DNA of 64,000 nt from Clostridia bacterium DTU025 (GCA_001513145.1 LFSP01000043.1:1-64000); one strand, 5' to 3'; numbered from the stretch's first letter, positions 7,685-33,893 are shown. Program-made: numbers and translations. Notes: generated from the letters alone by a model not told the origin.

Positions 7685-7778
7685 CATTGCGGCTGTGTTA
7701 GCTGACGGTTGGCGGCGGTTGGGGCCGGAGATGCCCGCTGTTCCGGCGCCAACCGCCTACTGCAACAGCCGCGATGGG
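7685..7778. repeat. Dispersed palindromic repeat, inverted pair 1
   Basis: Left unit 7685-7712 (inverted) and right unit 7749-7778 form a long stem around a loop of about 36 nt, beginning 4 bp after the stop codon of the radical SAM gene. The arms match the family consensus CCAACCG, a short variable stretch, then CTGACACAGCCGCAATGG with a few changes. The transcript would fold into a large hairpin. There is no U-run, so it is not a standard terminator. Confidence 0.9.
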
Positions 7779-7868
7779 TTTGAGACCCCCCCTTCTTTCC
7801 ATTCCACCAGCAGACATCGCTTTTCTGATACAATGAGTGTTAGTGCAGTGAATGGGGGCTGATAGCGT

Positions 7869-9362
7869 TTGAACGTTCTCCTTGAGAAGTTCAGGGACGT
7901 GGTGTCGGCGGTGCTGCCGATCACCCTGATCGTGGTGATCCTGAACTTCACCATCACTCCGCTTGAGAGTCACCTGCTGCTCCGCTTCATCCTTGGAGCG
8001 TTCGTGATCATCCTGGGGCTATCGGTGTTCCTCTTTGGCGCGGACATCGGCGTGACCCCCATAGGCACCCTCTTCGGGTCGCATATGGCCAAGAGCAACA
8101 AGGTCTGGGTGGTGGCGCTGGGTGGCCTCTCCCTGGGTTTCATGATCTCCATCGCCGAGCCAGACCTGCACATCCTGGCTGGGCAGGTGGAGGCGGTTTC
8201 CGGCGGAAGCGTCTCCAAGGTACTGATGGTGGTCGTGGTCTCCATCGGGCTGGCTGCGCTGATGACGACCGGTCTCTTCAGGATCGTTTTCAACAGGGCG
8301 CTGAACAAGCTCCTGGCTGCGGCGTACGTGATCATCGGGGCGATGGCGGTCTTCTCATCGCCGGAGTTCGTGGCGATAGCCTTCGACGCCTCCGGGGCCA
8401 CCACAGGCGCAATCACGGTGCCATTCATGCTGGCGATAGCATACGGCGTGTCCTCCCTGAAGAAGGACGGCCAGGCCTCTGAGGAAGACAGCTTCGGGCT
8501 GGTGGGCGTGGCGTCGGCCGGAGCCATCCTGGGAGTCATCGCCATGAGCCTGGGGGCCAAGCGCGTGCAGGCCGTGGCGGAGGTGGAGTCGGCCTTCTTA
8601 GCATCCACATCGGTTCTGGCTCCCTTCGTCCAACAGCTGCCGCACGTGGTCAGGGACTCCATCCTGGCGCTGTTGCCGCTGCTCGTGGCGTTCGTGATCT
8701 TTGAACCGGTGTCGTTCAAGCTGCCTCGGAGGCAGGTAAGCAGGATAGTCAAGGGCATGGTGTATACCTTCATCGGCCTTGTGCTGTTTCTCCTAGGGGT
8801 GAACGCCGGCTTCATGGACGTGGGGTCCATTGTAGGTGGCCAGGTGGTCACAGTCGCCGGCAAGTGGGTGCTGGTGGGCATCGGCTTCGCCCTGGGCACA
8901 GTGGTGGTGCTGGCTGAACCCGCCGTGTACGTGCTGACGAAGCAGATCGAAGAGGTCACCGCAGGATACGTTAAGAGAAGGCTGGTCTTGTTGGCGCTAT
9001 CCCTGGGCATCGGGATCGCGGTGGCCCTTGCGATGCTGCGGATCACCACTCCCACTCTGCAGCTCTGGCATTACCTGCTGCCGGGATACATCATCTCGCT
9101 GATACTGGCGTTCCAGGTCCCGCCGCTGTTCGTGGGCATCGCCTTCGACGCTGGGGGAGTGGCGTCAGGTCCCATGACAGCCAGCTTCATCCTGGCGTTC
9201 GCCCAGGGCGCCGCCCAGGCCACGGCTGGGGCCGATCCGATGGCCGAAGGCTTCGGGGTCATCGCGATGGTGGCGATGATGCCGCTGATAGCCCTGCAGC
9301 TCTTGGGCTTAGCCTTCAAACTGAAGACCGCGAAGGGGGGCACGGCCGCAGATGGAGAATAG
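7869..9362 (+). CDS. DUF1538 family integral membrane protein
   Basis: A 497-aa multi-spanning membrane protein made of two homologous halves. The N-terminal half has FGADIGVTPIGTLFG, then AEPDLHILAGQVE and VAIAFDASGATTGAITVPF; the C-terminal half repeats these as GVNAGFMDVGSI, AEPAVYVLTKQIEEV and GIAFDAGGVASGPMTASF. This two-fold repeat is typical of DUF1538 proteins, which are presumed transporters of unknown substrate. The start is TTG at 7869, with GGGGG about 10 bp upstream. It overlaps the next gene, a tandem PII-like protein, by 11 bp. By analogy with PII regulation of transporters, that protein probably gates or senses the transport activity. Confidence 0.85.
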   Translation: MNVLLEKFRDVVSAVLPITLIVVILNFTITPLESHLLLRFILGAFVIILGLSVFLFGADIGVTPIGTLFGSHMAKSNKVWVVALGGLSLGFMISIAEPDLHILAGQVEAVSGGSVSKVLMVVVVSIGLAALMTTGLFRIVFNRALNKLLAAAYVIIGAMAVFSSPEFVAIAFDASGATTGAITVPFMLAIAYGVSSLKKDGQASEEDSFGLVGVASAGAILGVIAMSLGAKRVQAVAEVESAFLASTSVLAPFVQQLPHVVRDSILALLPLLVAFVIFEPVSFKLPRRQVSRIVKGMVYTFIGLVLFLLGVNAGFMDVGSIVGGQVVTVAGKWVLVGIGFALGTVVVLAEPAVYVLTKQIEEVTAGYVKRRLVLLALSLGIGIAVALAMLRITTPTLQLWHYLLPGYIISLILAFQVPPLFVGIAFDAGGVASGPMTASFILAFAQGAAQATAGADPMAEGFGVIAMVAMMPLIALQLLGLAFKLKTAKGGTAADGE

Positions 9363-10020
9363 TCCGGAAAAGGCAGACATGGGGCTGTTCTGCGTCATCG
9401 TCAACTATGCGCTGGGAAGCAGGATCCTGAAGATAGCGAAGGAGGCCGGAGTCACCGGCGGCACCGTAATCCTGGGTAAGGGCACGATGCGCAGCCGCAT
9501 ACTGGAGTTTCTGGAGCTGGCGGACGTACGCAAGGAGATCGTCTTCATGGTCGCTGAAAAGCGCGTCGGCGAAGCTGCTCTGGAGCGGCTGGTGGACCGG
9601 CTGGACATGACGAAACCCAACCACGGGATAGCCTTCAGCATGCCGGTGAAAGGCGTGCTCGGCCTGCGCTGCGGAACCATGGAAGGAATCAATGAGAGCA
9701 GAGGTGTTGCCAGTCCCATGTACCATGCCATTTTCGTCATTGTGGACAAGGGTGGGGCGGACACGGTGATAGATGCCGCCAAGTCGGCCGGAGCCAAGGG
9801 CGCCACCGTCATCAACGCCCGAGGTTCGGGCATCCATGAGACAGCCATGCTCTTCTCCATGCCAATCGAGCCCGAGAAGGATATGGTCCTGATCCTGTCG
9901 GAGGCCAGCAAGACCCAGGCCATCTGCGAGGCCATACGGCAGGCGTGCAAGGTGGACGAGCCCGGCCGCGGCATCATCTTCGTCCTGGACGTTGACAAGA
10001 CCTACGGCCTGTACCAGTAG
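9352..10020 (+). CDS. Tandem PII-like (GlnB-fold) regulatory protein
   Basis: A 222-aa soluble protein with two GlnB-like units. Unit one (about residues 10-105) has GLFCVIVNYALGSRILKIA and ends HGIAFSMPVKGVLGL; unit two (about 115-222) has AIFVIVDKGGADTVIDAA and ends RGIIFVLDVDKTYGL. Each has an early G-G-T/A-T-V-I segment typical of the fold. The gene overlaps the DUF1538 membrane protein by 11 bp, so they are translated together. PII proteins bind adenine nucleotides or other small effectors and switch transporters; which effector is used here cannot be told. The T-loop tyrosine of classical GlnB is not evident. Confidence 0.8.
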   Translation: MENSPEKADMGLFCVIVNYALGSRILKIAKEAGVTGGTVILGKGTMRSRILEFLELADVRKEIVFMVAEKRVGEAALERLVDRLDMTKPNHGIAFSMPVKGVLGLRCGTMEGINESRGVASPMYHAIFVIVDKGGADTVIDAAKSAGAKGATVINARGSGIHETAMLFSMPIEPEKDMVLILSEASKTQAICEAIRQACKVDEPGRGIIFVLDVDKTYGLYQ

Positions 10021-10122
10021 GCATGAAGCACGCGGACGCCGCCGCGCCAGCCGCTTTCCCGCAGGGCCACAGAGGCTCTACCGAGAGGGCGGGCGGAACA
10101 TCACAGGCTGAGAGGGTGTAGC

Positions 10123-11101: not shown

Positions 11102-11168
11102 CCATTGCGGCTGTGTTAGTTGGCGGTTGGTGTTGGGCACCAACCGTCTGCTGACACAGCCGCGATTG
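11102..11168. repeat. Dispersed palindromic repeat, inverted pair 2
   Basis: Left unit 11102-11130 (inverted) and right unit 11140-11168 are separated by only 9 bp, making a near-perfect stem of about 29 bp between a dehydrogenase gene and a peptidase gene. It is the tightest hairpin of the family in the window. The peptidase reading frame happens to stay open across both arms but starts downstream of them. Confidence 0.92.
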
Positions 11169-13501: not shown

Positions 13502-16500
13502 GGCCGGTCCGCCTCGTGATTCAGGCGTTCGGCGCGTACGCCGGCCGCCAGGTGGTGGACTTCCGCGAGCTGGGCCCAAGGAGCTTCTTTCTGATCTCCG
13601 GCCCGACCGGCTCCGGCAAGACCACGGTGCTGGACGCCATCTGCTTCGCCCTCTACGGCGTGGCCAGCGGCTCGGAGCGCGAAGCCCGGGGCATGCGCAG
13701 CCATCACGCCGACCCGGCCACTCCCACCTGCATGGAGCTGGACTTCGTCGTGCGCGGCCGCCGCTACAAGGTCAGGCGCAGCCTGGACCACGAGGTGGAG
13801 GGCAGGAAGACCCCGCTGAAGGCCGATGCCACGTTGTGGGACATGGAGGGCTGCGACATCGACGGCGAGGGCCGAGTTCTCGCAACCGGCCTCACCAGGG
13901 TGACGCAGCACGTCACGTCCCTGCTGGGCCTGGGCGACAAGCAGTTTAGGCAGGTGGTGCTGCTGCCGCAGGGTCAGTTCCGGCAGGCGCTGACCGCAGG
14001 CTCCCAGGAGCGCCAGGAGATCTTCCAGCTGCTCTTCGACACGGTCCGCTACCTCGAGATCGAGCGAGCCCTGCTGGACGACGTCGCCAAGCTCAAGGCG
14101 GGCCTCCGCGATCTTGATGCCGCCATCCGGGCTGACCTGGAGCGGGCAGGCGTCGGCACCCGCGAGGAGCTGGAGTCCAAGATCCAGGAGGAGTCCGAGC
14201 GCTTCGAGCGGGCGAAAGACGCGGAGGCCGCGGCGCACAAGGCCGTGAAGGTGGCCGAGGCCGCGCTGAAGGCTGGCGAGCGGGCCATGGAGCTGCACCA
14301 GGAGGTCGCGGCGGCGCAGGAGCAGCTTGACCAGATCGAGGCGCAGCGGCCCGCCGTGGAGGCGCTCCGGCGCGAACTTGCCCTGGCGGAGAAGGCCCTG
14401 ACATGCGCGGCGGCACACGAGGCCTTCCAGTTCGCCGTGGCCGAGGAGGAGCACGCTGCTGGGGAGCACGCCGCCGCGGCAGAGGCGCTGGTGAAGGCGA
14501 AAGCCAAGCACGACGCTGCTCAAGCCGGCCTCTATAGGGAGCGGAGCCCGGAGCGTGCGCATGCCCGCGAGGAGGCGCAGCGAAAGGTGATGCGCCTGGC
14601 TGAGCTGGAAGGAGCCGTGGAGGAGATCGAGGCCGCCCGCGAATCGCTGGTGGAGGCAAGCCGACGGTGTGAGGAAGCGCAGGGCAAGGCCGAACAGGCT
14701 TCCAAGGAGCTTGAGCAGGCTAAGGAGTCTCTCGGGAGACTGGAGGAGGAGCGCAACGCGCTCAGGCTGCAGGCGGCCGCCGCCGGAGAGCATCGGCAAC
14801 AGCTCAAAGCGCTCGAGACGGCGATGGACCGCGCAGCCAGTCTTGAACGCCTAGAGAGGGAGCTGAAGAAGGCCCGAGAGGAAGCCGATGCCGCCGAGGC
14901 CAGGGCCAGGGCCGCCGACGAGGAGTTCAGGTCTGCCAGGGCGCGAGCCGATGCGCTGCGCGAGGCCATGATGCGGGACCAGGCTGCCTTCCTTGCGGCG
15001 AGCCTGGCCGAGGGCGAGCCATGCCCGGTGTGCGGATCGGTGCACCATCCGGCGCCGGCAAAGCCGGGCGACGGCGGCAAGCTGGTGGGGGCTGCAGAGG
15101 TGGAGCAGGCGGAGTCTGCCGCCAGAAGGAAGCAGGCCGCGGCAGAGGCAGCGGCCAAGGCGTTCCAGGAGGCTGGCACGGCCCTGTCTGTGCTCAAGGG
15201 GCGGGTGCAGGCCCTGAAGGAGAGCCAGACCGAGCCTGAAGCGTCAGTCAAGGAGCTGACCCGGCGGCACAGGGATGTCTCTGCGGCGCTGGATGCGTGC
15301 CTTCGCGCCGAGGACAGGCTGGCTCAGGTGGAGGAGGAGCTGAAGCGGGCGAGGGACGACGTCGCCAACCGTTCTGAAACACAGCTGCAATGGGAATCGG
15401 AGAGGGTCGACGCCGTCGCCAAGGAAGCCGCCGCCCGGGCTGCCCTGGACTCCTGCTCCAAGCGGGTGCCAGTGGAGCTCAGGTCCATGGACGCCCTGCG
15501 CGATGCGAAGGAGCGAGCGGAGAAGGAAAGGGCCGCGCTGGATAAGGCTCTGGAGGCCGCCATGCGGGAGCACGAGGACGCTGTCGGCAAGCTTTCCGCA
15601 GCGGAATCGGCGCTGAAGGCCGCCCAGTCTCGGGTGGAGGCCGCGGCCAAGCGCAAGGACGAGGCCAGCCGGAGGCTCCAGTCTTCAGTGGAAAGAGCGG
15701 GCTTTGAGTCGGTGGCGCACTTCCTCGGCTCAATCCGGGACGCCGACGCCATGGAGGGGCTGCGCAGTAAGGTCTCAGAGCTCGAGAGGGACCTTGCCGC
15801 CGCGACGGGGCGCCTCAAGCGGGCGAAGGATGCGGCCAAAGGCGTTGACAGGCCGGACCTGGAGCAGCTCAGGCAGACGTACGAGGCCGCCGACAGGGCG
15901 GAGAAGGAGGCCATCACGGCGAAGGCCGAGGCGAAGGCCCGATGCCAGGAGCTGGAACGGGCGCGCGGCGCACTGCTGAGGCACCTTGAGGAGCGGAGGC
16001 AGCTGGAGGAGGAGTACGCCGTGGTGAACCGGGTGGCGGAGGTGACGGCGGGCAGGGCGCCGAACAGGTTGGGGATGAACTTCGAGAGGTTCGTGCTGGC
16101 GTCCATGCTGGATCAGGTGGCGGAGACGGCAACGGCGCGTCTGCAGGTGATGAGCAGAGGGCGCTACCGCCTGCGCCGCACAGACCAGCGCAGGACCGCC
16201 CGGTCGCACGCAGGGCTGGAGCTGGAGGTGTACGACCACTACACCGGCAGGGAGAGGCCGGTGTCGACGCTGTCAGGCGGCGAGGGGTTCATGGCGTCGT
16301 TGGCGTTGGCGCTGGGCCTGTCCGACGTGGTGCAGGCGAGGTCAGGAGGGATCAGGCTCGACACCATCTTCATCGACGAGGGCTTCGGCACGCTTGACCC
16401 GGAGAGCCTAGACCTTGCCATTGACACCCTGGTGGACCTGCAGCTTGCAGGCTCCAGGCTGGTGGGGATCATATCCCACGTGCCGGAGCTTGCGGAGAGG

Positions 16501-16566: not shown

Positions 16567-16670
16567 GCCGCAGGGCTCCGTTCGGGCCATCTGCCCTGGG
16601 CGCAAGGGGATTGAGCATGCATATCCTGCAATGAGCTCAGCACCTATTCATACCCAGGGAGTTGATGGAC

Positions 16671-17255
16671 ATGGCCGAAATCGAGGCCGGTCAGGTCGGA
16701 ATGCGCCAGGGGCCTCCGCCCTGCCCCAACGGGTTTCTGTATCAGATTCGAGCAGGCGATACCCTGTTTGCCATAGCCCAGAGGTTCGGGACAACCGTAA
16801 CGCAGATCCTGGCGGCCAACCCAGGCCTGGATCCCAATTCGCTGCAGGTGGCGCGGCTGATCTGCATACCCAGGGCGGGCGCCCCAGGCGGATGCCCCGC
16901 CGGCACCAGCCCTTACACCATCCGCAGCGGCGACACTTTCTACTCCATCGCGCAGCGGGCAGGCACCACGGTGGAGGCCATCCAGAGGGCCAACCCCGGA
17001 GTGAACCCCAACGCGCTTCGGGTGGGGCAGGTCATCTGCGTGCCAGGTCGCGCGCCTGACGGAGCTCCCGGAGCGTGCCCAGCTGGCACCAGGCCGTACG
17101 TGATCCGCAGCGGCGACACCTTCTTCGCGCTGGCGCAGCGTTTCGGGGTGAGCGTCGCAGACCTGCAGGCCGCCAACCCGGGGGTGAACCCCAACGCGCT
17201 TCAGATAGGACAGCTCGTTTGCATCCCAACCCGAGTGCAGACCACCAGCAGCTGA
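16671..17255 (+). CDS. Triple LysM-domain protein
   Basis: A 194-aa protein made of three LysM repeats (about residues 20-65, 75-120, 130-180), each with the pattern Y-I-R-x-GDT-x-x-x-IAQRFGT, AANPGxxPNxLxxGQ and IC[IV]P, joined by Pro/Gly/Cys-containing linkers. LysM modules bind peptidoglycan or chitin-like glycans. There is no signal peptide, and Cys-rich LysM proteins without one are typical of spore coat or cortex proteins (SafA-like), so a spore location is likely. The start is chosen at ATG 16671, about 9 bp after AGGGAG; TTG 16662 and ATG 16665 are also in frame. Confidence 0.85.
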   Translation: MAEIEAGQVGMRQGPPPCPNGFLYQIRAGDTLFAIAQRFGTTVTQILAANPGLDPNSLQVARLICIPRAGAPGGCPAGTSPYTIRSGDTFYSIAQRAGTTVEAIQRANPGVNPNALRVGQVICVPGRAPDGAPGACPAGTRPYVIRSGDTFFALAQRFGVSVADLQAANPGVNPNALQIGQLVCIPTRVQTTSS

Positions 17256-18652: not shown

Positions 18653-19468
18653 ATGAGACGGGCCCGAGACGCACAGCATCATGAGGACAGGCAGTACCAC
18701 GGGTTCTTCGCGGAGTACTACGATGTGTTGCACGGCACGTATGACGCCGACATCCCGTTCTACCTGGATCTTGCTCGCAAGCACGGAGGGCCCATCCTCG
18801 AGCTGGGATCGGGCTCAGGCAGGCTACTTGTGCCCCTGGCAGAGGCGGGGCATGAGGTGACCGGCCTCGACGCATCCGAGGACATGCTAAAGCGGTGCGC
18901 CAACCGTCTACTGACACAGCCGCAATGGGTTCGCGACCGGGTCAGGCTGGAGCACGGCGACATGCTCGCCTTCAGCCTGCCCCGGCGCTTCTCCCTGGTC
19001 CTTGCCGCCTGCAACACCATACTCCACTGCGTCTCCACCGACCAGCTTCTCGCCCTGTTCGAGCGGGCCCGCGCCCATATGGCCCCCGACGGCCTCTTCG
19101 TGGTGGACTTCAACATCCCCAACGTCAAGAAGATGCTGGAGTCCGACGGCGTCGAGGAGGTGTTCCGGGTCACCCATCCCGAGGCCGGCACGGAGCTGGT
19201 CTGCACCTACCGCGCCGAATACGACTTCATCCGCCAGCTGGAGACCATCTACATGCACCTTCAGGAGTTCGACCGGGACCGGCTGCTGCGTGCGGCCACC
19301 AACACGACGCAGCGCGCCTTCTATTTCCCCAGGGAAGTTGCCCTTGCCCTGCGATCCTCAGGCTTCAGGACGGTCAGAACCTGGACCGGATACCGCCACG
19401 GCCGGCTAGTGGAATCCACCAGGGACATCGTGTACATCTGCCAGCGCAGCGATGAGCCGCGGAGTTGA
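18653..19468 (+). CDS. Class I SAM-dependent methyltransferase carrying an in-frame repeat
   Basis: A 271-aa methyltransferase with a complete SAM-binding core: motif I LELGSGSGRLLVPLA, motif II GLDASEDML, then HGDMLAF and the motif IV-like LVLAACNTI. The substrate is unknown. One unit of the dispersed repeat (18900-18928) lies inside the frame, giving the residues NRLLTQPQW between motif II and HGDML. The core is still continuous and of normal length, so the protein is probably functional. Its last 63 bp overlap the end of a convergent gene. The ribosome site is weak (GGAG about 16 bp upstream). Confidence 0.85.
   Translation: MRRARDAQHHEDRQYHGFFAEYYDVLHGTYDADIPFYLDLARKHGGPILELGSGSGRLLVPLAEAGHEVTGLDASEDMLKRCANRLLTQPQWVRDRVRLEHGDMLAFSLPRRFSLVLAACNTILHCVSTDQLLALFERARAHMAPDGLFVVDFNIPNVKKMLESDGVEEVFRVTHPEAGTELVCTYRAEYDFIRQLETIYMHLQEFDRDRLLRAATNTTQRAFYFPREVALALRSSGFRTVRTWTGYRHGRLVESTRDIVYICQRSDEPRS
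18900..18928 (+). repeat. Dispersed repeat, single unit inside a CDS
   Basis: A 29-bp unit close to the family consensus (CCAACCG, TCTA, CTGACACAGCCGCAATGG) lies wholly inside the methyltransferase gene. It is read in the one frame that has no stop and encodes NRLLTQPQW. No inverted partner is found nearby. Confidence 0.92.
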
Positions 19469-22613: not shown

Positions 22614-22642
22614 CCAACCGCCAACTGACACAGCCGCAATGG
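22614..22642 (+). repeat. Dispersed repeat, single unit
   Basis: A near-consensus unit (CCAACCG, CCAA, CTGACACAGCCGCAATGG) 11 bp after the stop codon of the oxidoreductase gene. No inverted partner within 150 bp. Confidence 0.92.
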
Positions 22643-22765: not shown

Positions 22766-24010
22766 ATGAGGGTAAACGTAGTGACCGTGGCGTCGTCGCT
22801 TCGAGACCGCTCCGTCATGGAGGCGCGGGAGACGGAGTACAGGGATCGTCTTGCGGCTGTGGGGAAGTCGGCAGGCGTTGAGCTGGCGTGGCTCCGGCCG
22901 GAAGCCACCGCTGCTGAGCTTGGCGCTGGCGCCGGTCTCATAGTATTGGTGTTAAGCGGCGGAACCGAGCGGGCAGGTCTTTCGCTGATGGCCAGGTGGG
23001 GCGGGCCGTGCGTGCTCCTGGCTCACAGCTCCGACAACGCGCTCGCCGCGGCGCTGGAGATGCTGAGCGTCGCCGGAACCGACGGGGCGCGCTGCAGGAT
23101 AGTGCAGGCACGGCCCGGCTGGAATGAGGAGATCGGCCGCGCACTCAGGGTCATGAGGGCCCACCACATGATGGCCACGTCGGTGCTGGGGGCCGTGGGC
23201 GCCCGCGACATCGAGCCCGTGCCAGACTGGGTGCTGGACCAGCAGTTTCGCCGAACCTGGGGCGTGGACGTGAGGCGCATCGCCATGGCCGAGCTGATGG
23301 ACGCCTACAGGGGCGAGGAGGACGAGCCGGCCAGGCGCATCGCCGACGAGCTGGCGGCCGCCGCCCGGGGGTGCGTCGAGCCCACTGGCGAGAACATGAT
23401 GGACTCGGCCAAACTGTACTCTGCGCTGAAGGGCATCATCACCAGATATGGTCTCACGGCTGTGACGGTGCGGTGCTTCGAGCTGCTGGCGCCTTTGCAG
23501 GCCACGGCGTGCTACGCGCTGGCCCGCCTCAACGACGAGGGGGTGCCGGCGGCCTGTGAGGGCGACATGGGCGCGGCCGTCACCATGATGCTGGCCAAGC
23601 ACCTGGCGGGCAGCCCCGGGTTCATGGCAAACCCGGCGGAGATAGATGAGCGAGGCGGCAGGATCCTTCTGGCACATTGCACCATACCCATGAGCATGTG
23701 CGACGATTTCACCCTGCGTTCGCACTACGAGTCAGGCTTCGGCGTCGGCATCCAGGGAAGCCTGCTCCCGGGGAGGGTGACCCTGCTTCGCGTAGGAGGA
23801 CCTGAGTTCAGAGAAGTCTACGTGGCCGCTGGCACGCTGGTGGAGTGCACCGACAGGGCGGACCTGTGCCGGACGCAGCTCATGATTGAGCTTGATTCGC
23901 CGGCCGAAGCTGCTAGAATTCTCAGTAGGCCCCTGGGCAACCATCACATCGTTGTCAAAGGGGATTTCGTTGACATCGTAAGGGATTACGTGGACTTCTA
24001 CTTGGCATAG
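22766..24010 (+). CDS. L-fucose/L-arabinose isomerase-like protein
   Basis: A 414-aa protein resembling the sugar isomerase family of L-fucose and L-arabinose isomerases. Supporting segments are ENMMDSAKLYSALKGII, the conserved CEGDMGAAVTMMLAKHLAG with Glu and Asp as metal ligands, the LAHCTIP segment and the C-terminal GNHHIVVKGDF with the usual His. The expected reaction is aldose-ketose isomerisation, but the substrate is not clear. GGGAGG lies 7 bp before the ATG. It follows a Gfo/Idh oxidoreductase and ends at a clear terminator, suggesting a small sugar-use unit. Confidence 0.82.
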   Translation: MRVNVVTVASSLRDRSVMEARETEYRDRLAAVGKSAGVELAWLRPEATAAELGAGAGLIVLVLSGGTERAGLSLMARWGGPCVLLAHSSDNALAAALEMLSVAGTDGARCRIVQARPGWNEEIGRALRVMRAHHMMATSVLGAVGARDIEPVPDWVLDQQFRRTWGVDVRRIAMAELMDAYRGEEDEPARRIADELAAAARGCVEPTGENMMDSAKLYSALKGIITRYGLTAVTVRCFELLAPLQATACYALARLNDEGVPAACEGDMGAAVTMMLAKHLAGSPGFMANPAEIDERGGRILLAHCTIPMSMCDDFTLRSHYESGFGVGIQGSLLPGRVTLLRVGGPEFREVYVAAGTLVECTDRADLCRTQLMIELDSPAEAARILSRPLGNHHIVVKGDFVDIVRDYVDFYLA

Positions 24011-24019
24011 CCCCGCAAG

Positions 24020-24041
24020 AATCGCCCGTAAGGGCGATTTT
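24020..24041 (+). terminator. Intrinsic terminator
   Basis: AATCGCCC, loop GTAA, GGGCGATT then TTTT, starting 9 bp after the isomerase-like gene. A standard Rho-independent terminator. Confidence 0.85.
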
Positions 24042-24101
24042 CCTCCGCGGCCGTCTGGTGTAGCCTTGTGGCAGAGCCAGACGGGTGCGGAGGTGACGGC
24101 G

Positions 24102-25136
24102 TTGCCTGCCAAGGCGTGCCCCGACTGCGGGGGCGTGCAGGTGATCAGGTGGGGCAGGCGCAGCGGCGTACAGCGCCTGAGGTGTAGGGCCTGCGGGCGC
24201 TGCTTCACCGAGGTGACTGGCACCGCGGTGGAGCGGCTGCGCCTCAGGAGCATGTGGACGAGGTTCCTGGAGTGCTTCGAGGAGAAGCTCACGGTGAGGG
24301 ACGCCGCGAGGCGCCTAGGGATGTCCACGCGGACTATCATGCGGTGGCGGCATCGGTTGCTTGCGGAGATGGAGCGGGAGGATCGTGCCGTGCTGCTGGA
24401 CGGCGTGGTGGAGCTGGCGCAGTTTCCGGTGCGGGACCCTTACGTGCACGCGCGTTTGCCGGAGCGCGAGCGTGCGTGGCTGCTCCTGGCGTGGAAGCGG
24501 GGCGGCCCTATGAGGTGCGCCATCGTCGACAACACCCCGGGGCACGGGCACCAGCAGGCCCTGGACTCCATGACCACCCGTGACGCGCTCCTCATGGAAC
24601 AGCGGCATTACGGAACGCGCAGGCCGGAGCCGACGTGCATCCGCAGCATCTGCTGGGTGGAGGGCATTCGGGGAAGGTGGAGCCCCGTGGACGTGGTCGG
24701 GAAGGGGCCAGGGTTCAATACCAGGCGCGCCAGGCAGATGATAAGGGAGTTCCGCCTGTGGCTGAGGCCCTTTTTCGGGGTCAAGCGCAAGTACCTTCTG
24801 GGCTACTTCTCCTGGTTCGCACGGACGCCGCAGGCTGCGAAGCTCACTTGCCAACCGTTAGCTGACACAGCCGCAATGACTTCAACGAAACGGAGACGGG
24901 TACACTTTGTCTCAGAGAGCTACAGCTTCCATCGCCAAGTTCGCCGGCGTCGTAGCCATGGGCGCAGTCCTCAGCAAGATCCTGGGCTTCCTGCGGGAGA
25001 CCACCCTAGCTTCGCAGTTCGGGGCAACGTTCGCCACCGACGCCTACTTCATGGCGATGGTGATACCCACCTTGCTCCTGATGGGGGTCGGCCCCGCCGT
25101 CACCACCACGCTGATCCCGGTCTTCACCGACATTGA
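24102..25136 (+). pseudogene. IS1595/IS1-like transposase, 3' end decayed
   Basis: The first 250 residues look like a transposase: a zinc ribbon (CPDCGG then CRACGRCFTE), a helix-turn-helix (TVRDAARRLGMSTRTIMRW), a short acidic catalytic-like segment (LLDGVVEL) and a C-terminal FGVKRKYLLGYFSWFAR. The start is probably TTG 24102, 8 bp after GCGGAGG. After about 24850 the frame enters a repeat unit and then runs 230 bp into murJ in the wrong frame, so the natural end has been lost. An inverted repeat CCGTCTGG/CCAGACGG (24052-24086) lies just upstream. I see no clear terminal inverted repeats. It could be a domesticated or dead element. Confidence 0.6.
24852..24880 (+). repeat. Dispersed repeat, single unit at the transposase 3' end
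   Basis: CCAACCG, TTAG, CTGACACAGCCGCAATG, ending 27 bp before the murJ start. It marks the point where similarity of the upstream frame to transposases ends. Confidence 0.9.
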
Positions 25137-26478
25137 CCGACGCAGGGGCCGCAGCGCGGCCTTCTCGTCTGTGAGCGTCATAATAAACGCCACCGCCCTC
25201 ATAGCCGCCGGCGTCATGGTAGCCGGCATGCTCCTGGCCCGCCCCATAGTCCGCGTGGTGGCGCCTGGGTTCTCCGGGGAGACTTACAGCCTCACGGTCA
25301 AACTGACAGTGATACTCTTCCCCATCGCGGTGTTCTCGGTCATCACGCACTCGGTGACCGGAGTGCTGCACGCGCTGGGGCTTTTCACCGTGCCCGCCCT
25401 GACTGGGATAGTCCAGAACGTGGTCATCATCACGTCGATCCTAGTGTTCGGTCCAAAGTATGGGATCACCGCGGTGGCAGTGGGGACCAGTCTGGGGTCA
25501 CTGTCGACGTTGCTGATACAGCTTCCGGTGCTGTATGGGGCGGGGTACCGCCACAGGTTCGTCCTGGACTGGCGGGACCGGGGCCTCAGGCAGGTGGGCA
25601 AGCTCATGGGGCCCATCGTGGCCGGCACGGCGGCGTCGCAGGCGGGCACCCTGGTCATCCGCACCCTGGCTTCCAGGCTGCCCGAGGGCAGCATCACATA
25701 CCTCAACTACTCCCAGCGCCTGGTGGGCCTGCCAACCGGCGTGTTCGGCACGGCCCTGGTGACGGTGCTGTACCCAACCATGGCCAGGCTGTTCGCCGAG
25801 GACAGGTCCAGGTTCATGCAGACCTTCAGGCGCTCCGTTGGAGTGATCTTCTTCACACTGGCCCCCATGGCCGCCGGTCTGATGATCCTGGCGTCGCCAG
25901 TGGTCCGCCTGGCCTTCGAGCGCGGCGCCTTCACCTCCGCAGCCACCGTGGCCACTGCGGCGTCGCTGACGTGCCTTTCGGTGGCAATACCCTTCACGAC
26001 CCTGACGGACCTGACCAACAAGGCCTTCTACTCCGCGCACAACACCATGACCCCGGTGGCCATCAACATGTCCGGGGTGGCGGCAAACGTCGTGGTGAGC
26101 CTGCTCCTGGTTGGCCGCCTGGGCCACGTGGGCCTGGCGATAGGCTCGGCGTTCCAGCCGATATTCACGTTCTTTCTGGGGCAGCGTCTTCTGCGCAGGA
26201 AAGTCGGTGGGGTGAACGGCTACAGGTTGCCGGTCTCGGTGGCCAAGACGCTGGCCGCAGCACTCATCATGAGCGCAGCGGTGGTGGCGGTGGACCCGCA
26301 CCTTGCCAGGGTCTTCTCGGGATCCGGCGTGGTGCGGCAGGCGCTGCGCCTGGCGGGCTCGGTGGCCACCGGCGGCCTGGCCTACGTGGCCGCCGCAGCG
26401 CTCTTGCGAAGCGGGGAGCTATCGTTCGCTGTCGACACCGTACGTGAGCGGGCCGCCAGGGTTCGCCGAAGAGGATAG
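24907..26478 (+). CDS. murJ: Lipid II flippase MurJ
   Basis: A 523-aa integral membrane protein of the MOP superfamily that moves lipid II across the membrane for peptidoglycan synthesis. The N-terminal KILGFLRETTLASQFGA is the family signature, with about 14 predicted helices following; YFMAMVIPTLL and the later LVGLPTGVFGTAL are also typical. The start is TTG at 24907 after CGGAG. It has no clear promoter of its own other than sequence around the repeat unit upstream. Its last 60 bp overlap the end of a convergent phosphodiesterase-like gene. Confidence 0.93.
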   Translation: MSQRATASIAKFAGVVAMGAVLSKILGFLRETTLASQFGATFATDAYFMAMVIPTLLLMGVGPAVTTTLIPVFTDIDRRRGRSAAFSSVSVIINATALIAAGVMVAGMLLARPIVRVVAPGFSGETYSLTVKLTVILFPIAVFSVITHSVTGVLHALGLFTVPALTGIVQNVVIITSILVFGPKYGITAVAVGTSLGSLSTLLIQLPVLYGAGYRHRFVLDWRDRGLRQVGKLMGPIVAGTAASQAGTLVIRTLASRLPEGSITYLNYSQRLVGLPTGVFGTALVTVLYPTMARLFAEDRSRFMQTFRRSVGVIFFTLAPMAAGLMILASPVVRLAFERGAFTSAATVATAASLTCLSVAIPFTTLTDLTNKAFYSAHNTMTPVAINMSGVAANVVVSLLLVGRLGHVGLAIGSAFQPIFTFFLGQRLLRRKVGGVNGYRLPVSVAKTLAAALIMSAAVVAVDPHLARVFSGSGVVRQALRLAGSVATGGLAYVAAAALLRSGELSFAVDTVRERAARVRRRG

Positions 26479-27765
26479 AGCGCTCCAGAGTACCCTTCCG
26501 GTGGCGCCGGCAGGCGGCGCTATCCCCAGCAGATACGATATGGTGGGGGCCACGTCGATGATGGGCGTCGGCTCCTCGATCACCACCCCCTGGCGTATTC
26601 CGGCGCCGCTTAACACCATAAACACGTTGGTGGAAGACCGGTGCCGGCCGTCATGGTTGGCGCCCACTCCGAACAGCACGTCCTTGGCGGAGAAGTGGTG
26701 CGGCGGCTCGGGCCAGACCAGCATGTCGCCGCTTAAGGGGCTTGTGCCCAGGTGATCAAGCTCGTCCCTGGTGAGGACTCCGCCCACGTATGGCTGCGCG
26801 GCGATGCTGGCAGCCAGCGCGTCGAGGCGGGCGCGGTCCATCTCATGCAGGAAGTAGACCTGAACGGCCATGCCTGTCGACAGGATGATCGCGTCTGTGG
26901 CACTGGACGGTTGGTCGTCCATATCCAGCACCTCGGCCTTGAGCCCCGCGCGGCTGAACTGCGACAGAAGCTCCGGCATGCTGGACCGCCCCCAGTACGG
27001 GGTCATGCCGTGGTCCGACGTGAGGATTATAGTAGTCCGTTCGAAGATTCCGAGCTTTCGCAAGCCGTCAAGGAGGGTTCCCAGCGCCCTGTCCATCCTG
27101 GAAAGCTCAGACGCCATCTTCCGGCGCCAGCTGGGCTCCGCCAGGGACGGCAGAGTCCCGTAGCCCAGCCCATTGTGGCCGGCGGCGTCCAGGTCGTCGC
27201 CGTAGATGGCCAGGAACTCCGGCATGCCGGACTCGATGATCTTCAGGGCCTCTGCCACCCGGCGCTCGAACCTGCCGCCTGGCTGCACGTACGTGTCTGC
27301 GCGGCCCTGCAGGACGAACTGCTGCACCGACGCGGTGGAAAGCCCCGCCTTCGCTGCAGCCTCGGCCACAGTCTCCACGTTGTTGAACCTGCCGGAAACC
27401 TTCACCATGTTCGTGGCGGCGTCGTAGTGGCGGCCGACGTTGCCGTGGGTTTCAGGCCATGCCCCTGTGAGGGCGCTGGTCTGCATGGCCGTGGTGACGC
27501 TGGGAACGCCTGTGTACGCGTTGGGGAAGTACGCGCCCTGGCTGACCAGGCCCTCCAGGTTCGGAGCGCCTGGCCCGCCAGGGGCCACTGCCCAGTCGAA
27601 GTAGTCGCGGCGGAATCCGTCCCAGTTGATGTATATGACGAACCTTTCGGGTTCCGCGGCGCCAACCGTCAACAACAACAGCTGCGATGAGATGGCGAGA
27701 GCGGCGACGGCCGCCAGCGCCACTGCCCTGGTTCGCCGGCACACGAACACGAGAAAGCGGGGCAT
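26419..27765 (-). CDS. Exported alkaline phosphatase/nucleotide pyrophosphatase-superfamily enzyme
   Basis: A 448-aa secreted phosphodiesterase-type metalloenzyme. A long signal peptide is followed by the first metal site (YINWDGFRRDYFD), the nucleophile region VPSVTTAMQTSALTG with the likely Thr, and DDLDAAGHNGLG and LTSDHGMTPY as the metal-binding Asp/His motifs. The substrate could be a phosphodiester or a glycolipid head group. GGAGGG lies 5 bp before the ATG at 27765; an in-frame ATG at 27783 is less likely. A degenerate copy of the dispersed repeat lies in the signal-peptide region. It is convergent with murJ and overlaps it by 60 bp. Confidence 0.86.
   Translation of the reverse strand: MPRFLVFVCRRTRAVALAAVAALAISSQLLLLTVGAAEPERFVIYINWDGFRRDYFDWAVAPGGPGAPNLEGLVSQGAYFPNAYTGVPSVTTAMQTSALTGAWPETHGNVGRHYDAATNMVKVSGRFNNVETVAEAAAKAGLSTASVQQFVLQGRADTYVQPGGRFERRVAEALKIIESGMPEFLAIYGDDLDAAGHNGLGYGTLPSLAEPSWRRKMASELSRMDRALGTLLDGLRKLGIFERTTIILTSDHGMTPYWGRSSMPELLSQFSRAGLKAEVLDMDDQPSSATDAIILSTGMAVQVYFLHEMDRARLDALAASIAAQPYVGGVLTRDELDHLGTSPLSGDMLVWPEPPHHFSAKDVLFGVGANHDGRHRSSTNVFMVLSGAGIRQGVVIEEPTPIIDVAPTISYLLGIAPPAGATGRVLWSALSSSANPGGPLTYGVDSER
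27662..27690 (+). repeat. Dispersed repeat, degenerate unit in a signal-peptide region
   Basis: CCAACCGTCAACAACAACAG followed by CTGCGATGA matches the family with several changes. It encodes, on the other strand, part of the hydrophobic core and cleavage region of the phosphodiesterase-like protein (SSQLLLLTVGA). Confidence 0.7.
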
Positions 27766-27815
27766 GATATCCCTCCACGTCAATCATACCCCGCCGTAAG
27801 CTGCCAGACCGTATG

Positions 27816-29219: not shown

Positions 29220-30029
29220 GTGTTGGAACAAGTAAGATGCCTCCTTCTGGACCTTGACGGCACCATATACCTGGGAGACCAGCTAATCCCCGGCGCGCTG
29301 CGCCTGAAGGAGGCGGCCGAGCGCATCGGGATGGACGTCTTCTTCCTCACCAACAACTCGTCCCGCTCCAGAGAGCATTACTCCAAGAAGATCACGAAAA
29401 TGGGCTGGCCCGTCCACGTCGACTCCGTCCTCAGCTCCACGCAGGCCACGGCCCTGACGCTGCTTGAGCGGGGCTGGCGCCGCGTGTACCTGGTGGGCAC
29501 CCCCAGCTTCCGCCAGGAGCTGGAGAACTACGGTATCACTGTCGCTGGAGACGCCGAGCCTTCGGTGGACTGCGTCGTGGTGGGCTTCGACACCACCTTG
29601 GAGTACTCAAAGCTGAGGGCCGCTGGACGGCATATCCTCCGTGGCACGCCCATGATCTCGTCGAACCCAGACCGCGTATGCCCCCTCGAAGGCGGCGAGT
29701 TCATCCCTGACTGCGCCGCCATCACCGCGTGCCTGCTTACGGCCTACCCCGGCACCACCACGGAGTACATGGGCAAGCCCGAGCTTCCAATGCTGCGGCT
29801 GGTGGAGTCGCGCACCCGCTGGCGCGGCAGAGCCATCGCCATGGTGGGAGACAGGCTCTACACCGACGTGCGCTTCGGTTCCCGCTGGGGCCTCACCGCC
29901 GTGCTCACGCTGTCGGGGGAGACCGCCGTCGAGGACCTTGGCCCCGACGATAGGCCCGACGTCATCGTGAAGGACGTGGGCGAGCTGGCGGATATGCTGC
30001 TCGAGGCCAATGGGCTGAAGCCATTGTAG
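29220..30029 (+). CDS. HAD-IIA family hydrolase (NagD/p-nitrophenylphosphatase-like)
   Basis: A 269-aa phosphatase of the haloacid dehalogenase superfamily. Motif I is LLLDLDGTIYLGD, motif II LTNNSSRS, motif III the Lys in MGKPELPM and motif IV AMVGDRLYTDV; the type IIA cap lies between. It removes phosphate from sugar phosphates, nucleotides or 2-phosphoglycolate-like compounds. The start is GTG at 29220, 9 bp after AAAGGAG. The last residues and stop codon (KPL-stop) lie within a copy of the dispersed repeat. Confidence 0.92.
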   Translation: MLEQVRCLLLDLDGTIYLGDQLIPGALRLKEAAERIGMDVFFLTNNSSRSREHYSKKITKMGWPVHVDSVLSSTQATALTLLERGWRRVYLVGTPSFRQELENYGITVAGDAEPSVDCVVVGFDTTLEYSKLRAAGRHILRGTPMISSNPDRVCPLEGGEFIPDCAAITACLLTAYPGTTTEYMGKPELPMLRLVESRTRWRGRAIAMVGDRLYTDVRFGSRWGLTAVLTLSGETAVEDLGPDDRPDVIVKDVGELADMLLEANGLKPL

Positions 30030-30049
30030 CTGTTGACCTTGGCGGTTGG
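30021..30049 (-). repeat. Dispersed repeat, single unit overlapping a stop codon
   Basis: An inverted-orientation, moderately degenerate unit (CCATTGTAGCTG ... GGCGGTTGG). It supplies the last two codons and the TAG stop of the HAD hydrolase gene and the spacer before glpP. Confidence 0.8.
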
Positions 30050-30061
30050 TGCCTGACGCCT

Positions 30062-30667: not shown

Positions 30668-30769
30668 GCGTATGCACTCCCTCCGCAGGCGGCCAGCGCC
30701 TGATGTGAGAAGCTTTATCCTTTGAATGATATACTTGTTGGCGTTGCCAGCGCAACTGGGGGGCTGAAC

Positions 30770-31750
30770 ATGAAGCGCAGGTGGAGGGCCTTGCTCGCGA
30801 TCCTTTGCGGCTGTGCTACTCTGTGGTTGGCGGCCTCTGGCTGGGCCAAAGCCGCGCCAACCGTCACCTACAACAGCTGCAATGGGTTCGAAGAGGAAGG
30901 CATGCCGGTCGCATCCATTGTCATGGGGGAGGAGCTCGGGCGCTGGGGCCCCGGCCGCAGCGGAGGCCTGATCCTGAGCGGCGAGGCGTCGCCGTTTCGA
31001 TGGTTCGGCTACTCGTTGACAGCGGGCAATGCCAGCTACGTGCGGCTCGTGGCGCCGCTGCAGGAGGAGGGCCAGAGGGTGGAGAGGCGGCTCGTCGGGC
31101 ACAGGCTGGAGTACCGCCCGTGTCCGTGGCTGGTCGTGGCGGTGAGCGAGACTGCTGTGGGTTCGGGGGATCTGTCTGCGATAATGTACTGGCCATTCCC
31201 GGGCTTTCCGCTGTACGGTCTTCAGAAGGCGGCATATCAGGCGGACTCGAAGCAGGACTCCCTGATAAACGTGCAGCTGGGCGCGGATTTCCGGGTGAGC
31301 GTGGGACGGGCGGAGCTGTGGGGCGAGTTTCTCATCGACGACGCCCAGGCCACCCTGGAGGAAAAGGCGAAGGTGCCTGACATGATAGCGTACCTGGTGG
31401 GCGCGGGGGTGTCGGGCCTCGGGCCTGAGGGCAAGCTCAGCGTGAGGGGGGAGTACGTGAGGATAGCCAACTTCGTGTACTCGCACAGGAACCCCGATTC
31501 CGCATACATTCTGGACGGAAAGCCGCTGGGCCACAGCCTGGGCCCTGACGCCGACATGTTTGAGCTCGCGGCGGAATACGCCCTCGGGCCGGGCGGGCCC
31601 ACCATCGAGGCGGCCGCCTCCGTACAGCGCCACGGCGAGGGCGAGCTGGCTAAGCCGTGGGCGGAGCACAAGCCGCCGCCTGGAAAGTTCCCGTCCGGCG
31701 AGGTTGAACTGGTGTTCACCGCATCCTTAGGTGTCAGAATGGACATATGA
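30770..31750 (+). CDS. Exported beta-barrel-like protein resembling capsule assembly Wzi proteins
   Basis: A 326-aa exported protein. The signal peptide (about residues 1-29) is encoded by an inverted pair of the dispersed repeat. The mature part has alternating strands and segments reminiscent of Wzi-like barrels: ELWGEFLIDDAQATLEEK, SVRGEYVRIANFVYSH, LDGKPLGHSLGPDADMFEL, and a terminal VELVFTASLGVRMDI. Wzi proteins are outer-membrane barrels, so this would suggest a second membrane. The similarity is by eye and partial. The ATG at 30770 is preceded by GGGGGG. It is convergent with a second small barrel-like gene. Confidence 0.65.
   Translation: MKRRWRALLAILCGCATLWLAASGWAKAAPTVTYNSCNGFEEEGMPVASIVMGEELGRWGPGRSGGLILSGEASPFRWFGYSLTAGNASYVRLVAPLQEEGQRVERRLVGHRLEYRPCPWLVVAVSETAVGSGDLSAIMYWPFPGFPLYGLQKAAYQADSKQDSLINVQLGADFRVSVGRAELWGEFLIDDAQATLEEKAKVPDMIAYLVGAGVSGLGPEGKLSVRGEYVRIANFVYSHRNPDSAYILDGKPLGHSLGPDADMFELAAEYALGPGGPTIEAAASVQRHGEGELAKPWAEHKPPPGKFPSGEVELVFTASLGVRMDI
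30804..30885. repeat. Dispersed palindromic repeat, inverted pair 3, inside a CDS
   Basis: Left unit 30804-30830 (inverted) and right unit 30857-30885, both degenerate, are separated by 26 bp. The whole pair is read as the core and cleavage region of a signal peptide (LCGCATLWLA ... APTVTYNSCNG). Confidence 0.75.
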
Positions 31751-31790: not shown

Positions 31791-32210
31791 TTAGAACGTG
31801 ATGCGCACCCCCGACCTGACCTTGCCGTAGCTTGCGGGGGCCATAACCCACTCGAACTCGGCGAAGAGCTTGTGGAACTCGCCGCCTGCCAGCACTGACG
31901 GATGCACCTCTTTCGAGTGGATCTCCCACGTGGCGCCGGCCCCGACGTAGGCTCCGGTGAGCACGAACACCCTGTGCGGTATGTACAGCAGCGCCGACGC
32001 CGTGGCTGAGCCGCCGTCTTCTAGGATGTCGAGGTTCAGGGAGAGGTTGAACCAGTCCAGCGGCCTGAACCCCGTGCCGATGTTGAAGCCGTCTCCAAGG
32101 ACAAAAGAAGCTTGAACCCAGGAGTTCGCGTCGCAGGCCGCGGGCGCCGCCAGGGCAGTCAGCACTGCGACGAACACGCACACTGACAGTGCCAGTATCT
32201 TGGTCTTCAT
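31791..32210 (-). CDS. Small exported beta-barrel-like protein
   Basis: A 139-aa exported protein with a clear signal peptide (MKTKILALSVCVFVAVLTAL) and a body of alternating hydrophobic strands (LNLDILEDGGSATASALLYI). It ends in SGVRITF; a C-terminal Phe on an amphipathic strand is the usual signal for outer-membrane barrel assembly. GGGAGGTGA lies about 8 bp before the ATG at 32210. I recognise no named family. It is convergent with the Wzi-like gene, 40 bp apart, and divergent from the VanZ-like gene. Confidence 0.7.
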   Translation of the reverse strand: MKTKILALSVCVFVAVLTALAAPAACDANSWVQASFVLGDGFNIGTGFRPLDWFNLSLNLDILEDGGSATASALLYIPHRVFVLTGAYVGAGATWEIHSKEVHPSVLAGGEFHKLFAEFEWVMAPASYGKVRSGVRITF

Positions 32211-32254
32211 GTGAATGTCACCTCCCATTGGGCGGTTTTTCGGAGGAATGAGCC

Positions 32255-32707
32255 TTGAGCCAACGGCGCCGAGCCCTGTTGTGGTGGGCCTTAGTTGCAG
32301 CGTACCTGTTGACAATAGCCATCGCCTGGACCAGGCCTGAGTTCGGCGCCGACTACGCGATCCGCCTTCTCGCGCGTTGGTTCCCGACGCTTGAGCCTGC
32401 CAAAATAAGGCTCGCCGTGGTCGCAGCGCGGAAGGTCGCGCATTTTCTCGGATATGGTGTATTCTCCGTCATCCTGTGCAACGCCTTCCTGTCGATGGCG
32501 CCTGATAGGCCCTCTCGAAGAAACGTGTTCGGCCGCGCTGTCCTCGCAGCTTTGGGGGCCTTGGCGCTGGCCGTCATAGACGAATCGCGTCAGCACGCGT
32601 CGCCTTTCCGCACCGGCGCCACGGCAGATATTTTCCTCGACGTGTTGGGGATAGCCACGGGGCTGGCCTTGCGGATTCTAACTGGCAATGGAAGACGGGA
32701 AACGTGA
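32255..32707 (+). CDS. VanZ family membrane protein
   Basis: A 150-aa protein with about four membrane helices. Family marks are ARKVAHFLGYGVFSVIL and the late VIDESRQHASPFRTGATADIFLDVLGIATG. VanZ-like proteins are linked to cell-envelope functions and teicoplanin tolerance, but the mechanism is unknown. The start is TTG at 32255, 8 bp after GGAGG. prsA follows 63 bp later with its own -10 box. Confidence 0.85.
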   Translation: MSQRRRALLWWALVAAYLLTIAIAWTRPEFGADYAIRLLARWFPTLEPAKIRLAVVAARKVAHFLGYGVFSVILCNAFLSMAPDRPSRRNVFGRAVLAALGALALAVIDESRQHASPFRTGATADIFLDVLGIATGLALRILTGNGRRET

Positions 32708-32722
32708 GTGCAAGATATGCGT

Positions 32723-32728
32723 TATAAT
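32723..32728 (+). promoter_or_regulatory. -10 box for the PrsA-like gene
   Basis: A perfect TATAAT lies 42 bp before the ATG of the foldase gene. The hexamer 17 bp upstream is not a good -35, so the promoter may need an activator or be weak. Confidence 0.5.
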
Positions 32729-32770
32729 ACTGAGAGTGGCACTGCAACTTCATAATGGGAGGTCGGCTTC

Positions 32771-33787
32771 ATGAGACTTAAGAGACTCTTAGCTTCATCG
32801 CTACTCGCGCTTTTCCTAGTGGCTGCCGTGGCATGGCCCGGTGCGGCGGCCGACACTGAGCTCGTGGTAAAGCTCAAGGACGGACTTGAGATCCTGGTGG
32901 AGATCCCGGTGGACCCCGAGGCCATAGAATCGTTCCACGTCGGCTCCACGCAGTTCGTGGCCCAGGAGGCCGGCGGCGCTCTGATCGCCCGCGTCGGCGA
33001 TGAGGAGATCCCTGCGAAAGCGTTCTATGACAGCCTGGTGGAGCTTGCCGGCAGGGACGTGCTGATGCAGCTCATGGCCGAGGCGGCGCTGCGGGACGCC
33101 GCCAGAGCCAGAAACGTGACTGTGACCGAAGAGGACGTCGTAGCCGAGCTGGAGTCCATCAAGAGCCAGCTGGGCCCGGCGTTCGACCAGATCCTTATCC
33201 AGTACAACATGACCGAGGCCGACCTTCTTCACAACATAGAGCTGAGCCTGCTCGCGGTGGAGATCGCCAATGCCGGCCGCGAGATCACCGACGCAGAGGT
33301 GGAGGAGTACTACAACGCCAACATCGATGTGTTCTCGATTCCCGAATCGGTGAGGGCAAGTCACATATTAGTGGAGACTGAAGAGGAGGTCCAGGCGGTT
33401 CTGGACGCGCTGGAAGAGGGCCAGTCCTTCGCAGACCTGGCGATGCGGTACTCCATCGACACCGGATCGGCGGTGCGCGGCGGCGACCTCGGCTACTTCT
33501 ACCGTGGAGACATGGTCCAGGAGTTCGAGGACGTTGCGTTTGCGCTGGAGGTGGGCGAGACCAGCGGCGCGGTGAAGACGGACTACGGCTACCACGTGAT
33601 CGCTCTCACCGACAGGATCCCGCGGAAGGTGTACTCGCTGGAAGAGGTGAGGGAGGACGTCATCACCATGATGAGGCAGCAGCGCACCCCGGAGTTCGGG
33701 CAGCTGGTGTCGGAGCTTCTGAGGACCACTCCCGTCACCATCTATGACGAGAGGTTCCAGGATCTCAGCAACTCATTGCAGCCGTAG
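32771..33787 (+). CDS. PrsA/SurA-like peptidylprolyl isomerase
   Basis: A 338-aa exported foldase. A signal peptide (about residues 1-27, no lipobox Cys) precedes a SurA-N-like chaperone region and a PpiC parvulin domain (about 195-285: VRASHILVETEEE, FADLAMRYSID, GGDLGYFYRGDMV, YGYHVIALTDR). It helps fold secreted or outer-membrane proteins. The lack of a lipobox differs from Bacillus PrsA and would fit a soluble SurA-like periplasmic protein. GGGAGG lies before the ATG. The last codons and stop (SLQP-stop) are inside a unit of the dispersed repeat. Confidence 0.9.
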   Translation: MRLKRLLASSLLALFLVAAVAWPGAAADTELVVKLKDGLEILVEIPVDPEAIESFHVGSTQFVAQEAGGALIARVGDEEIPAKAFYDSLVELAGRDVLMQLMAEAALRDAARARNVTVTEEDVVAELESIKSQLGPAFDQILIQYNMTEADLLHNIELSLLAVEIANAGREITDAEVEEYYNANIDVFSIPESVRASHILVETEEEVQAVLDALEEGQSFADLAMRYSIDTGSAVRGGDLGYFYRGDMVQEFEDVAFALEVGETSGAVKTDYGYHVIALTDRIPRKVYSLEEVREDVITMMRQQRTPEFGQLVSELLRTTPVTIYDERFQDLSNSLQP

Positions 33788-33893
33788 CAGTTAACGGTTG
33801 GTGGGGAACCCGGGCGAGCTTGAAGCGGTGCGCCCGGGTTCCTGTGCCTTCAGGGGCTCTGCTACCAACCGCCAACTGACACAGCCGCAATGG
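33773..33893. repeat. Dispersed palindromic repeat, inverted pair 4
   Basis: Left unit 33773-33801 (inverted) covers the stop codon of the PrsA-like gene; right unit 33865-33893 is near consensus. The 63 bp between them contain a separate GC-rich hairpin at 33806-33841. Confidence 0.88.
33806..33841 (+). terminator. Hairpin, probable terminator
   Basis: GAACCCGGGCG and CGCCCGGGTTC pair perfectly over 11 bp with a 14-nt loop, 19 bp after the PrsA-like stop. The T-run is poor (TTCCTGTGCCTT), so strength is uncertain. Confidence 0.55.

What the first reader, a model, noticed from the sequence alone, without database searches (positions are those of the whole stretch)
7685..33893. Dispersed 29-bp palindromic repeat family, thirteen units at nine loci
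Seen directly: units at 7685, 7749, 11102, 11140, 18900, 22614, 24852, 27662, 30021, 30804, 30857, 33773 and 33865. Four loci are inverted pairs (CAATGG ends outward) and five are single units. Five loci sit within 20 bp after, or across, a stop codon. All lie in the left half of the window. No REP-associated transposase is visible, so the mobilising enzyme, if any, is elsewhere. Known comparisons are REP/BIME elements of Gram-negatives and RPE-type coding repeats of Rickettsia; this sequence matches neither that I know.
Basis: seen in the sequence. Interest (0 to 1): 0.75.

Follow-up and report, generated by a model that had tools for sequence, protein, structure and literature searches.

The report
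Defunct transposase with maintained DNA sites
The repeats look like docking sites, scattered over about 47 kilobases, for a jumping-gene enzyme that has lost its cutting residues; in a related genus both the enzyme gene and its sites are kept in place by natural selection, which suggests bacteria have turned a dead jumping gene into a working part of the chromosome.

Summary
The repeat family is real: all 13 units are confirmed, plus one at 15365 (inside sbcC) and weaker ones. The unit is not a palindrome. It is an asymmetric two-part site, CCAACCG-N9-ACAGCYGCRATGG. Of about 24 copies in the 2.0-Mb genome, most lie in one ~47-kb cluster. Its relatives in the order carry the same two-part sequence at their ends, so the units are terminal-repeat sites of this protein family. 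All 16 aligned order members lack the IS1595 D-D-N catalytic set, which 10 of 11 outside rows keep. In a related genus two species share 15 of 15 comparable sites; the conserved blocks are 98% identical while the DNA inside pairs has drifted to 41-63%, and the gene has dN/dS 0.22. A third species lacks the gene at the same locus and has no or decayed sites. In the window, sites inside rlmD, a methyltransferase and sbcC show no indel against the closest relative, so they arose in place. Best reading: a catalytically dead, domesticated transposase with maintained binding sites, closest in plan to REPIN-RAYT. What the array does (DNA bridging is my guess) is unproven.

The parts
24078..24878 (+). 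IS1595-like transposase-derived gene: zinc ribbon, HTH, RNase-H-like region without catalytic residues (VELAQ instead of VEVDE). The open frame runs from 23982 to 25136, but coding signal stops at the unit at 24851
   Evidence: NF050000 2e-10, NF033547 1.6e-11, below that model's own cut-off; HTH_23; no counterpart in G004 synteny; only copy in genome; GC3 0.88 up to 24851 and 0.48 after it; model pLDDT 80, top PDB match ISCth4 transposase at E 0.004, none at or below 0.001
7684..7712 (-). site, left member of inverted pair; starts 3 bp after a stop codon; a decayed counterpart remains at the same place in G004
   Evidence: G004 C85:4398, 24.8 bits
7749..7777 (+). site, right member of pair
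11102..11130 (-). site, left member of pair; pair lies in ~100 bp absent from G004
11140..11168 (+). site, right member of pair
18900..18928 (+). site inside methyltransferase coding sequence, no indel against relatives
22614..22642 (+). single site after stop codon
24851..24879 (+). site at the 3' end of the transposase-derived gene, at the place of the right terminal repeat
26886..26914 (-). weak candidate site in a coding region
   Evidence: 27 bits, E 0.014
27662..27690 (+). site in the signal-peptide region of the minus-strand gene 26419-27783
30021..30049 (-). single site across the stop of a HAD gene; 48 bp absent from G004
30802..30830 (-). site, left member of pair, in the 5' coding part of a Wzi-like gene
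30857..30885 (+). site, right member of pair
33773..33801 (-). site, left member of pair, provides the stop of a rotamase gene
33865..33893 (+). site, right member of pair

Best explanation
The units are terminal-repeat-type binding sites of an IS1595-derived protein that has lost its catalytic residues and become a resident DNA-binding protein; one gene for it lies in the cluster (24078-24878). Shown: the units match the terminal repeats of the elements that encode this protein family; the catalytic set is absent in every aligned member of this order; in the sister genus sites and gene are conserved in place; where the gene is missing the sites are missing or decayed. Inferred: the protein binds the two blocks with its zinc ribbon and HTH, and still pairs two sites through its inactive integrase-like domain, as transposases pair their two ends. 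That would bridge the sites and hold the ~47-kb neighbourhood together as a folded domain. Pairs began as deletion derivatives of the element; some single sites, including coding ones, became full sites by point mutation. Confidence by step: terminal-repeat origin 0.9; dead and domesticated protein with selected sites in the sister genus 0.85; same state in the window's genome 0.65; bridging role 0.3.
For: Terminal repeats of the plan [TC]CAACC[AG]nnnnCTGGGACAG-tail (tail outward) lie next to homologues in G001, G003, G004, G005, G007, G008. Catalytic D1, D2 and third residue are not conserved in the 16 order members; 10 of 11 outside rows have D, D, N; published IS1595-family catalytic pattern E-DESYFG..VYTD (PMC12561309). 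G003-G007: 15 of 15 comparable sites kept, blocks 98.2% identical, 9-bp middle 83%, spacer inside pairs 41-63% in most cases, often with indels. Gene dN/dS 0.22 (zinc/HTH 0.19, rest 0.16) against 0.09-0.15 in neighbours. G006, same genus: a continuous contig without the gene, three site pairs absent at syntenic places, three decayed sites elsewhere. Coding sites in rlmD, methyltransferase and sbcC without indel, blocks 19-20 of 20 to consensus against 4-12 in G004. Middle of paired sites no more alike within than between pairs, so no RNA stem is selected. The two clusters hold different genes, so the cluster follows the gene.
Against: No binding or bridging was measured. The window's gene may be decaying: its stop codon and C-terminal ~25 residues are replaced by the unit, no left end is found, and it sits on a long branch. 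No sister species of G000 is held, so conservation in place was tested only in genus g4. In G008 elements with the same lost residues exist in copies 79-86% identical, so the family, or a helper acting on it, did multiply there. G006 is 87% complete and the absence rests on few loci. Homologues in G001, G004, G005 and G008 have terminal repeats but no array within ~10 kb.
Confidence: 0.65

Rival explanations
1. Ordinary non-autonomous mobile repeats (MITE- or REP-like) of an IS1595-type element that spread locally and are now decaying; no host function.
For: Pairs have the geometry of two element ends with a short inside; the pair at 11102/11140 and the unit at 30021 lie in DNA absent from G004; related 1.25-kb elements multiplied in G008; many units at gene ends.
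Against: Sites kept at 15 of 15 places between two species while neighbouring DNA drifted; low dN/dS of the gene; coding units without indel; no canonical IS1595 transposase in the genome; conserved blocks around a free 9-bp middle are not what uniform decay leaves.
Confidence: 0.2
2. Operators of a transcription regulator: the transposase-derived protein controls the genes of the cluster.
For: Bipartite, strongly conserved sites; some in divergent intergenic regions close to start codons in G003 (C167:5858/6050 and 17930/18152); a zinc ribbon and HTH.
Against: Many sites lie between convergent genes, after stop codons or inside coding regions, with no promoter in view; the two clusters hold unrelated ordinary genes.
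Confidence: 0.15
3. Uptake- or transfer-signal type sequences (as DUS/USS) that accumulate in place through biased DNA uptake and recombination.
For: In-place origin in coding regions, inverted pairs at gene ends, ~29-bp length, even spacing.
Against: About 24 copies mostly in 47 kb instead of hundreds genome-wide; sequence identical in plan to the ends of transposase-bearing elements; presence follows the transposase gene.
Confidence: 0.04

Closest known systems
REPIN-RAYT systems (REP-associated tyrosine transposases with dispersed inverted REP pairs)
   Same: One chromosomal transposase-type gene inherited vertically; short dispersed sites, many as inverted pairs, between genes; long persistence (PMC3116915, PMC8049555).
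   Different: RAYTs are HuH/Y1 enzymes that keep their catalytic residues (own knowledge; PMC6006769); REPs are hairpins in large numbers over the genome. Here a DDE-type protein without catalytic residues, asymmetric bipartite sites, ~20 copies, clustered near the gene, at fixed places.
IS1595 insertion-sequence family
   Same: Zinc ribbon and HTH, integrase-like region, terminal repeats containing GCTGT; same family by profile.
   Different: Canonical D, D and third residue lost in every aligned member of this order; in genera g1 and g4 an array of free terminal-repeat sites surrounds the gene.
MITEs of DDE insertion sequences
   Same: Pairs look like two element ends with a short inside.
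   Different: Single sites as conserved as pairs; positions shared between species; coding sites arise without insertion.
CENP-B and other eukaryotic DNA-binding proteins derived from dead transposases (analogy only, own knowledge)
   Same: Transposase-derived DNA-binding protein with a regional array of short sites resembling transposon ends.
   Different: Different transposase superfamily and domain of life; no segregation role shown; canonical parS and dnaA lie on another contig here.
matS/MatP, parS/ParB and other chromosome-domain sites
   Same: Regional array of sites bound by one dedicated protein, tolerated in coding sequence.
   Different: Unrelated protein and site; no GC-skew switch at the cluster.

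Membership tests
IS1595 insertion sequences | IS1/IS1595 zinc ribbon plus HTH | tested here: met
   NF050000 2e-10 above its cut-off; HTH_23 4e-8
IS1595 insertion sequences | DDE/DDN catalytic residues | tested here: not met
   D1, D2 and third residue replaced in the window protein; the set is incomplete in all 15 order homologues
IS1595 insertion sequences | Two terminal inverted repeats bounding the gene | tested here: not met
   Window gene has only a right-hand unit (24851); homologues G001:C20, G008:C55 and G008:C85 have both
IS1595 insertion sequences | About 8-bp target duplications | tested here: inconclusive
   None seen at window pairs or G008 copies; copies are old
REP/BIME/REPIN-RAYT | HuH/Y1 tyrosine transposase | tested here: not met
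   Cluster gene is IS1595-type; no Y1 domain among cluster proteins searched
REP/BIME/REPIN-RAYT | Unit folds as a short palindrome/hairpin | tested here: not met
   Unit asymmetric; within-pair middle similarity 0.54, not above between-pair 0.62
REP/BIME/REPIN-RAYT | Dispersed inverted pairs with one resident transposase-type gene | tested here: met
   Four pairs in window, seven in G003, seven in G007; one such gene in G000
Rickettsia RPE | In-frame insertion of the repeat into coding genes | tested here: not met
   Coding units align without indel
MITE | Present or absent at homologous places as clean insertions | tested here: inconclusive
   Two loci lie in extra DNA against G004, others not; 15 of 15 shared in G003/G007
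ParB/parS centromere | Sites near oriC/parAB, canonical parS | tested here: not met
   dnaA and two exact parS on contig C11, none in cluster
DUS/USS uptake sequences | Hundreds of copies genome-wide, uptake bias | tested here: not met
   About 24 copies, clustered; uptake itself not testable

The most novel reading that the evidence does not exclude
A bacterial counterpart of CENP-B: a catalytically dead DDE transposase, kept by selection, that binds and pairs an array of maintained terminal-repeat sites around its own gene to organise a chromosome domain. At least two genera of uncultured Bacillota have such arrays in different parts of the chromosome, built from related proteins with different site tails.
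Probability: 0.3. Interest if true: 0.9.

Novelty: new variant of a known kind. Interest (0 to 1): 0.72.

Why it matters
Domesticated DDE transposases with a maintained field of binding sites are known from eukaryotes; in bacteria the nearest case, REPIN-RAYT, rests on a different enzyme that keeps its active site. Here gene and sites can be followed through gain, upkeep and loss in closely related genomes. That makes it testable why bacteria keep transposase-derived genes with dispersed repeats, an open question for REPs too, without transposition as a confounder.

Tried and rejected
Origin/centromere or terminus array: no GC-skew switch, parS and dnaA elsewhere. Phage or known genomes: exact-motif scans of viral contigs and GTDB r220 contigs found nothing; the G000 model found no match better than E 0.01 in 60 relatives, because tails differ between lineages; the link appeared only through the transposase homologues. 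RNA structure: no Rfam hit at the units; paired middles not selected to match. Recent horizontal import of the 47-kb region: gene order and identity to G004 are similar inside and outside. Acquisition of coding sites by copying another unit: in rlmD the residues N, R, V, L of the 5' half and middle are shared with G004, which speaks against a copied tract. Literature searches for inactive IS1595 proteins with site arrays found no precedent.

Full report
Observation. A weight matrix scores them 29-46 bits; shuffled windows reach at most 15. Another strong unit lies at 15365 in sbcC. The unit is not a palindrome: aligned copies show two fixed blocks, CCAACCG and ACAGCYGCRATGG, around nine variable bases, with weak extension on both sides. 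Pairs always have the ATGG ends outward.

Distribution. In the 2.0-Mb genome (52 contigs, 96.7% complete) about 24 copies are credible. Most lie in C40 7.7-33.9 kb and the last 13 kb of C14. rlmD at the C14 end and sbcC on C40 lie on single contigs in G001 and G002, so I infer one cluster of ~47 kb. Loci are more evenly spaced than random. There is no skew switch there, and parS and dnaA are on C11.

The gene in the cluster. Comparison with the syntenic G004 contig showed one gene without counterpart, between an AraA-like gene and murJ: the frame 23982-25136. It has an IS1/IS1595 zinc ribbon, an HTH, and weak matches to IS1595 transposases below that family's cut-off. The AlphaFold model (pLDDT 80) matches ISCth4 transposase and retroviral integrases best, at marginal E-values. 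It is the only such gene in the genome. The unit at 24851 sits at its 3' end; codon-position GC shows coding up to there and not beyond, so the gene has lost its natural end.

Homologues and their ends. Several copies exist in G001-G005, G007 and G008. Next to most of them lies a sequence of the same plan, with tail outward, at one or both ends. The units are therefore terminal-repeat sites of this protein family. In G008, five copies of a 1.25-kb element are 79-86% identical.

Catalytic residues. In 10 of 11 outside rows, including a Bacillota one (G016:C31), D, D and N stand at the expected places; the eleventh, L275, aligns poorly. In the 16 members of this order these positions hold A, G, M, V, N, S, H and so on, and only G008:C55 keeps the first D. 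The catalytic pattern of the family is described for ISApl4 (PMC12561309).

Sister-genus test. In G003 a homologue (C147) is surrounded by the same kind of array with another tail (GACAGCRCGTATGGG): 24 pattern matches in G003, 19 in G007, 3 in G006, none in the reversed control. G003 and G007 are separate species (~85% nucleotide identity in these regions). All 15 comparable sites are shared. Blocks are 98.2% identical, the middle 83%, and the DNA inside pairs only 41-63% in most cases, often with indels. Purifying selection acts on the sites at fixed places. The gene is syntenic and has dN/dS 0.22 (0.16-0.19 in the conserved parts) beside 0.09-0.15 in neighbours. G006, same genus, has no such gene by two searches. 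On contig C42 the two flanking regions of the gene are joined by ~520 bp, and three site pairs are absent at syntenic places. Its few remaining sites score lower, including one at the place of G003:C102:5272. In G004, which lacks the gene at this place, one decayed site remains where the window has 7684. This fits loss of sites after loss of the protein, on few loci.

In-place origin. Units in rlmD (C14:67211), the methyltransferase (18900) and sbcC (15365) align to G004 with no indel, and the blocks differ from G004 at 8, 10 and 16 of 20 positions. In rlmD part of the site is an old protein motif, NRVLG. So these sites were completed by substitutions. By contrast, the pair 11102/11140 and the unit 30021 lie in DNA absent from G004: insertion there or loss in G004.

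What it does. Sites stand between genes in every arrangement and inside genes, and the two clusters hold different ordinary genes, which argues against simple gene regulation. Paired middles are not selected to match, so RNA hairpins are not the selected feature. A transposase normally holds two ends together; an inactive one with many sites could bridge them and fold its neighbourhood. That is inference.

Limits. No binding data; no close species for G000; its own copy may be decaying; draft genomes throughout. Named records behind the relatives are uncultured Bacillota MAGs.

Noticed in passing
window 54994-55131 and 56955-57227: FMN riboswitch (RF00050) and two tRNA genes (Gly-CCC, Thr-CGT) in the right half of the window; ordinary.
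   Followed up: no
window 27662-27690 and 30802-30885: Units fall in the signal-peptide coding part of two genes (26419-27783 minus; Wzi-like 30722-31750), reading as hydrophobic or tolerated residues.
   Followed up: partly
G008 contigs C14, C21, C37, C75, C85 (L173, L167, L181, L174, L175): A 1.25-kb IS1595-like element without canonical DDE residues exists in copies 79-86% identical; how it multiplied is unclear (helper in trans, or an altered active site).
   Followed up: partly
G007:C2:6206/6339 (L224): A site pair in ~4.6 kb that corresponds to only ~200 bp in G003:C147; possible gain or loss event worth a closer look.
   Followed up: no
L170 sites and window sites, outward tails: The outer part of the site ends in ATGGG in both genera although the preceding bases differ (CGT against YGCA); the tail may reflect protein specificity.
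   Followed up: no
window 16662-17255: Three tandem LysM domains encoded by a recognisable DNA repeat (about 180-bp unit).
   Followed up: no
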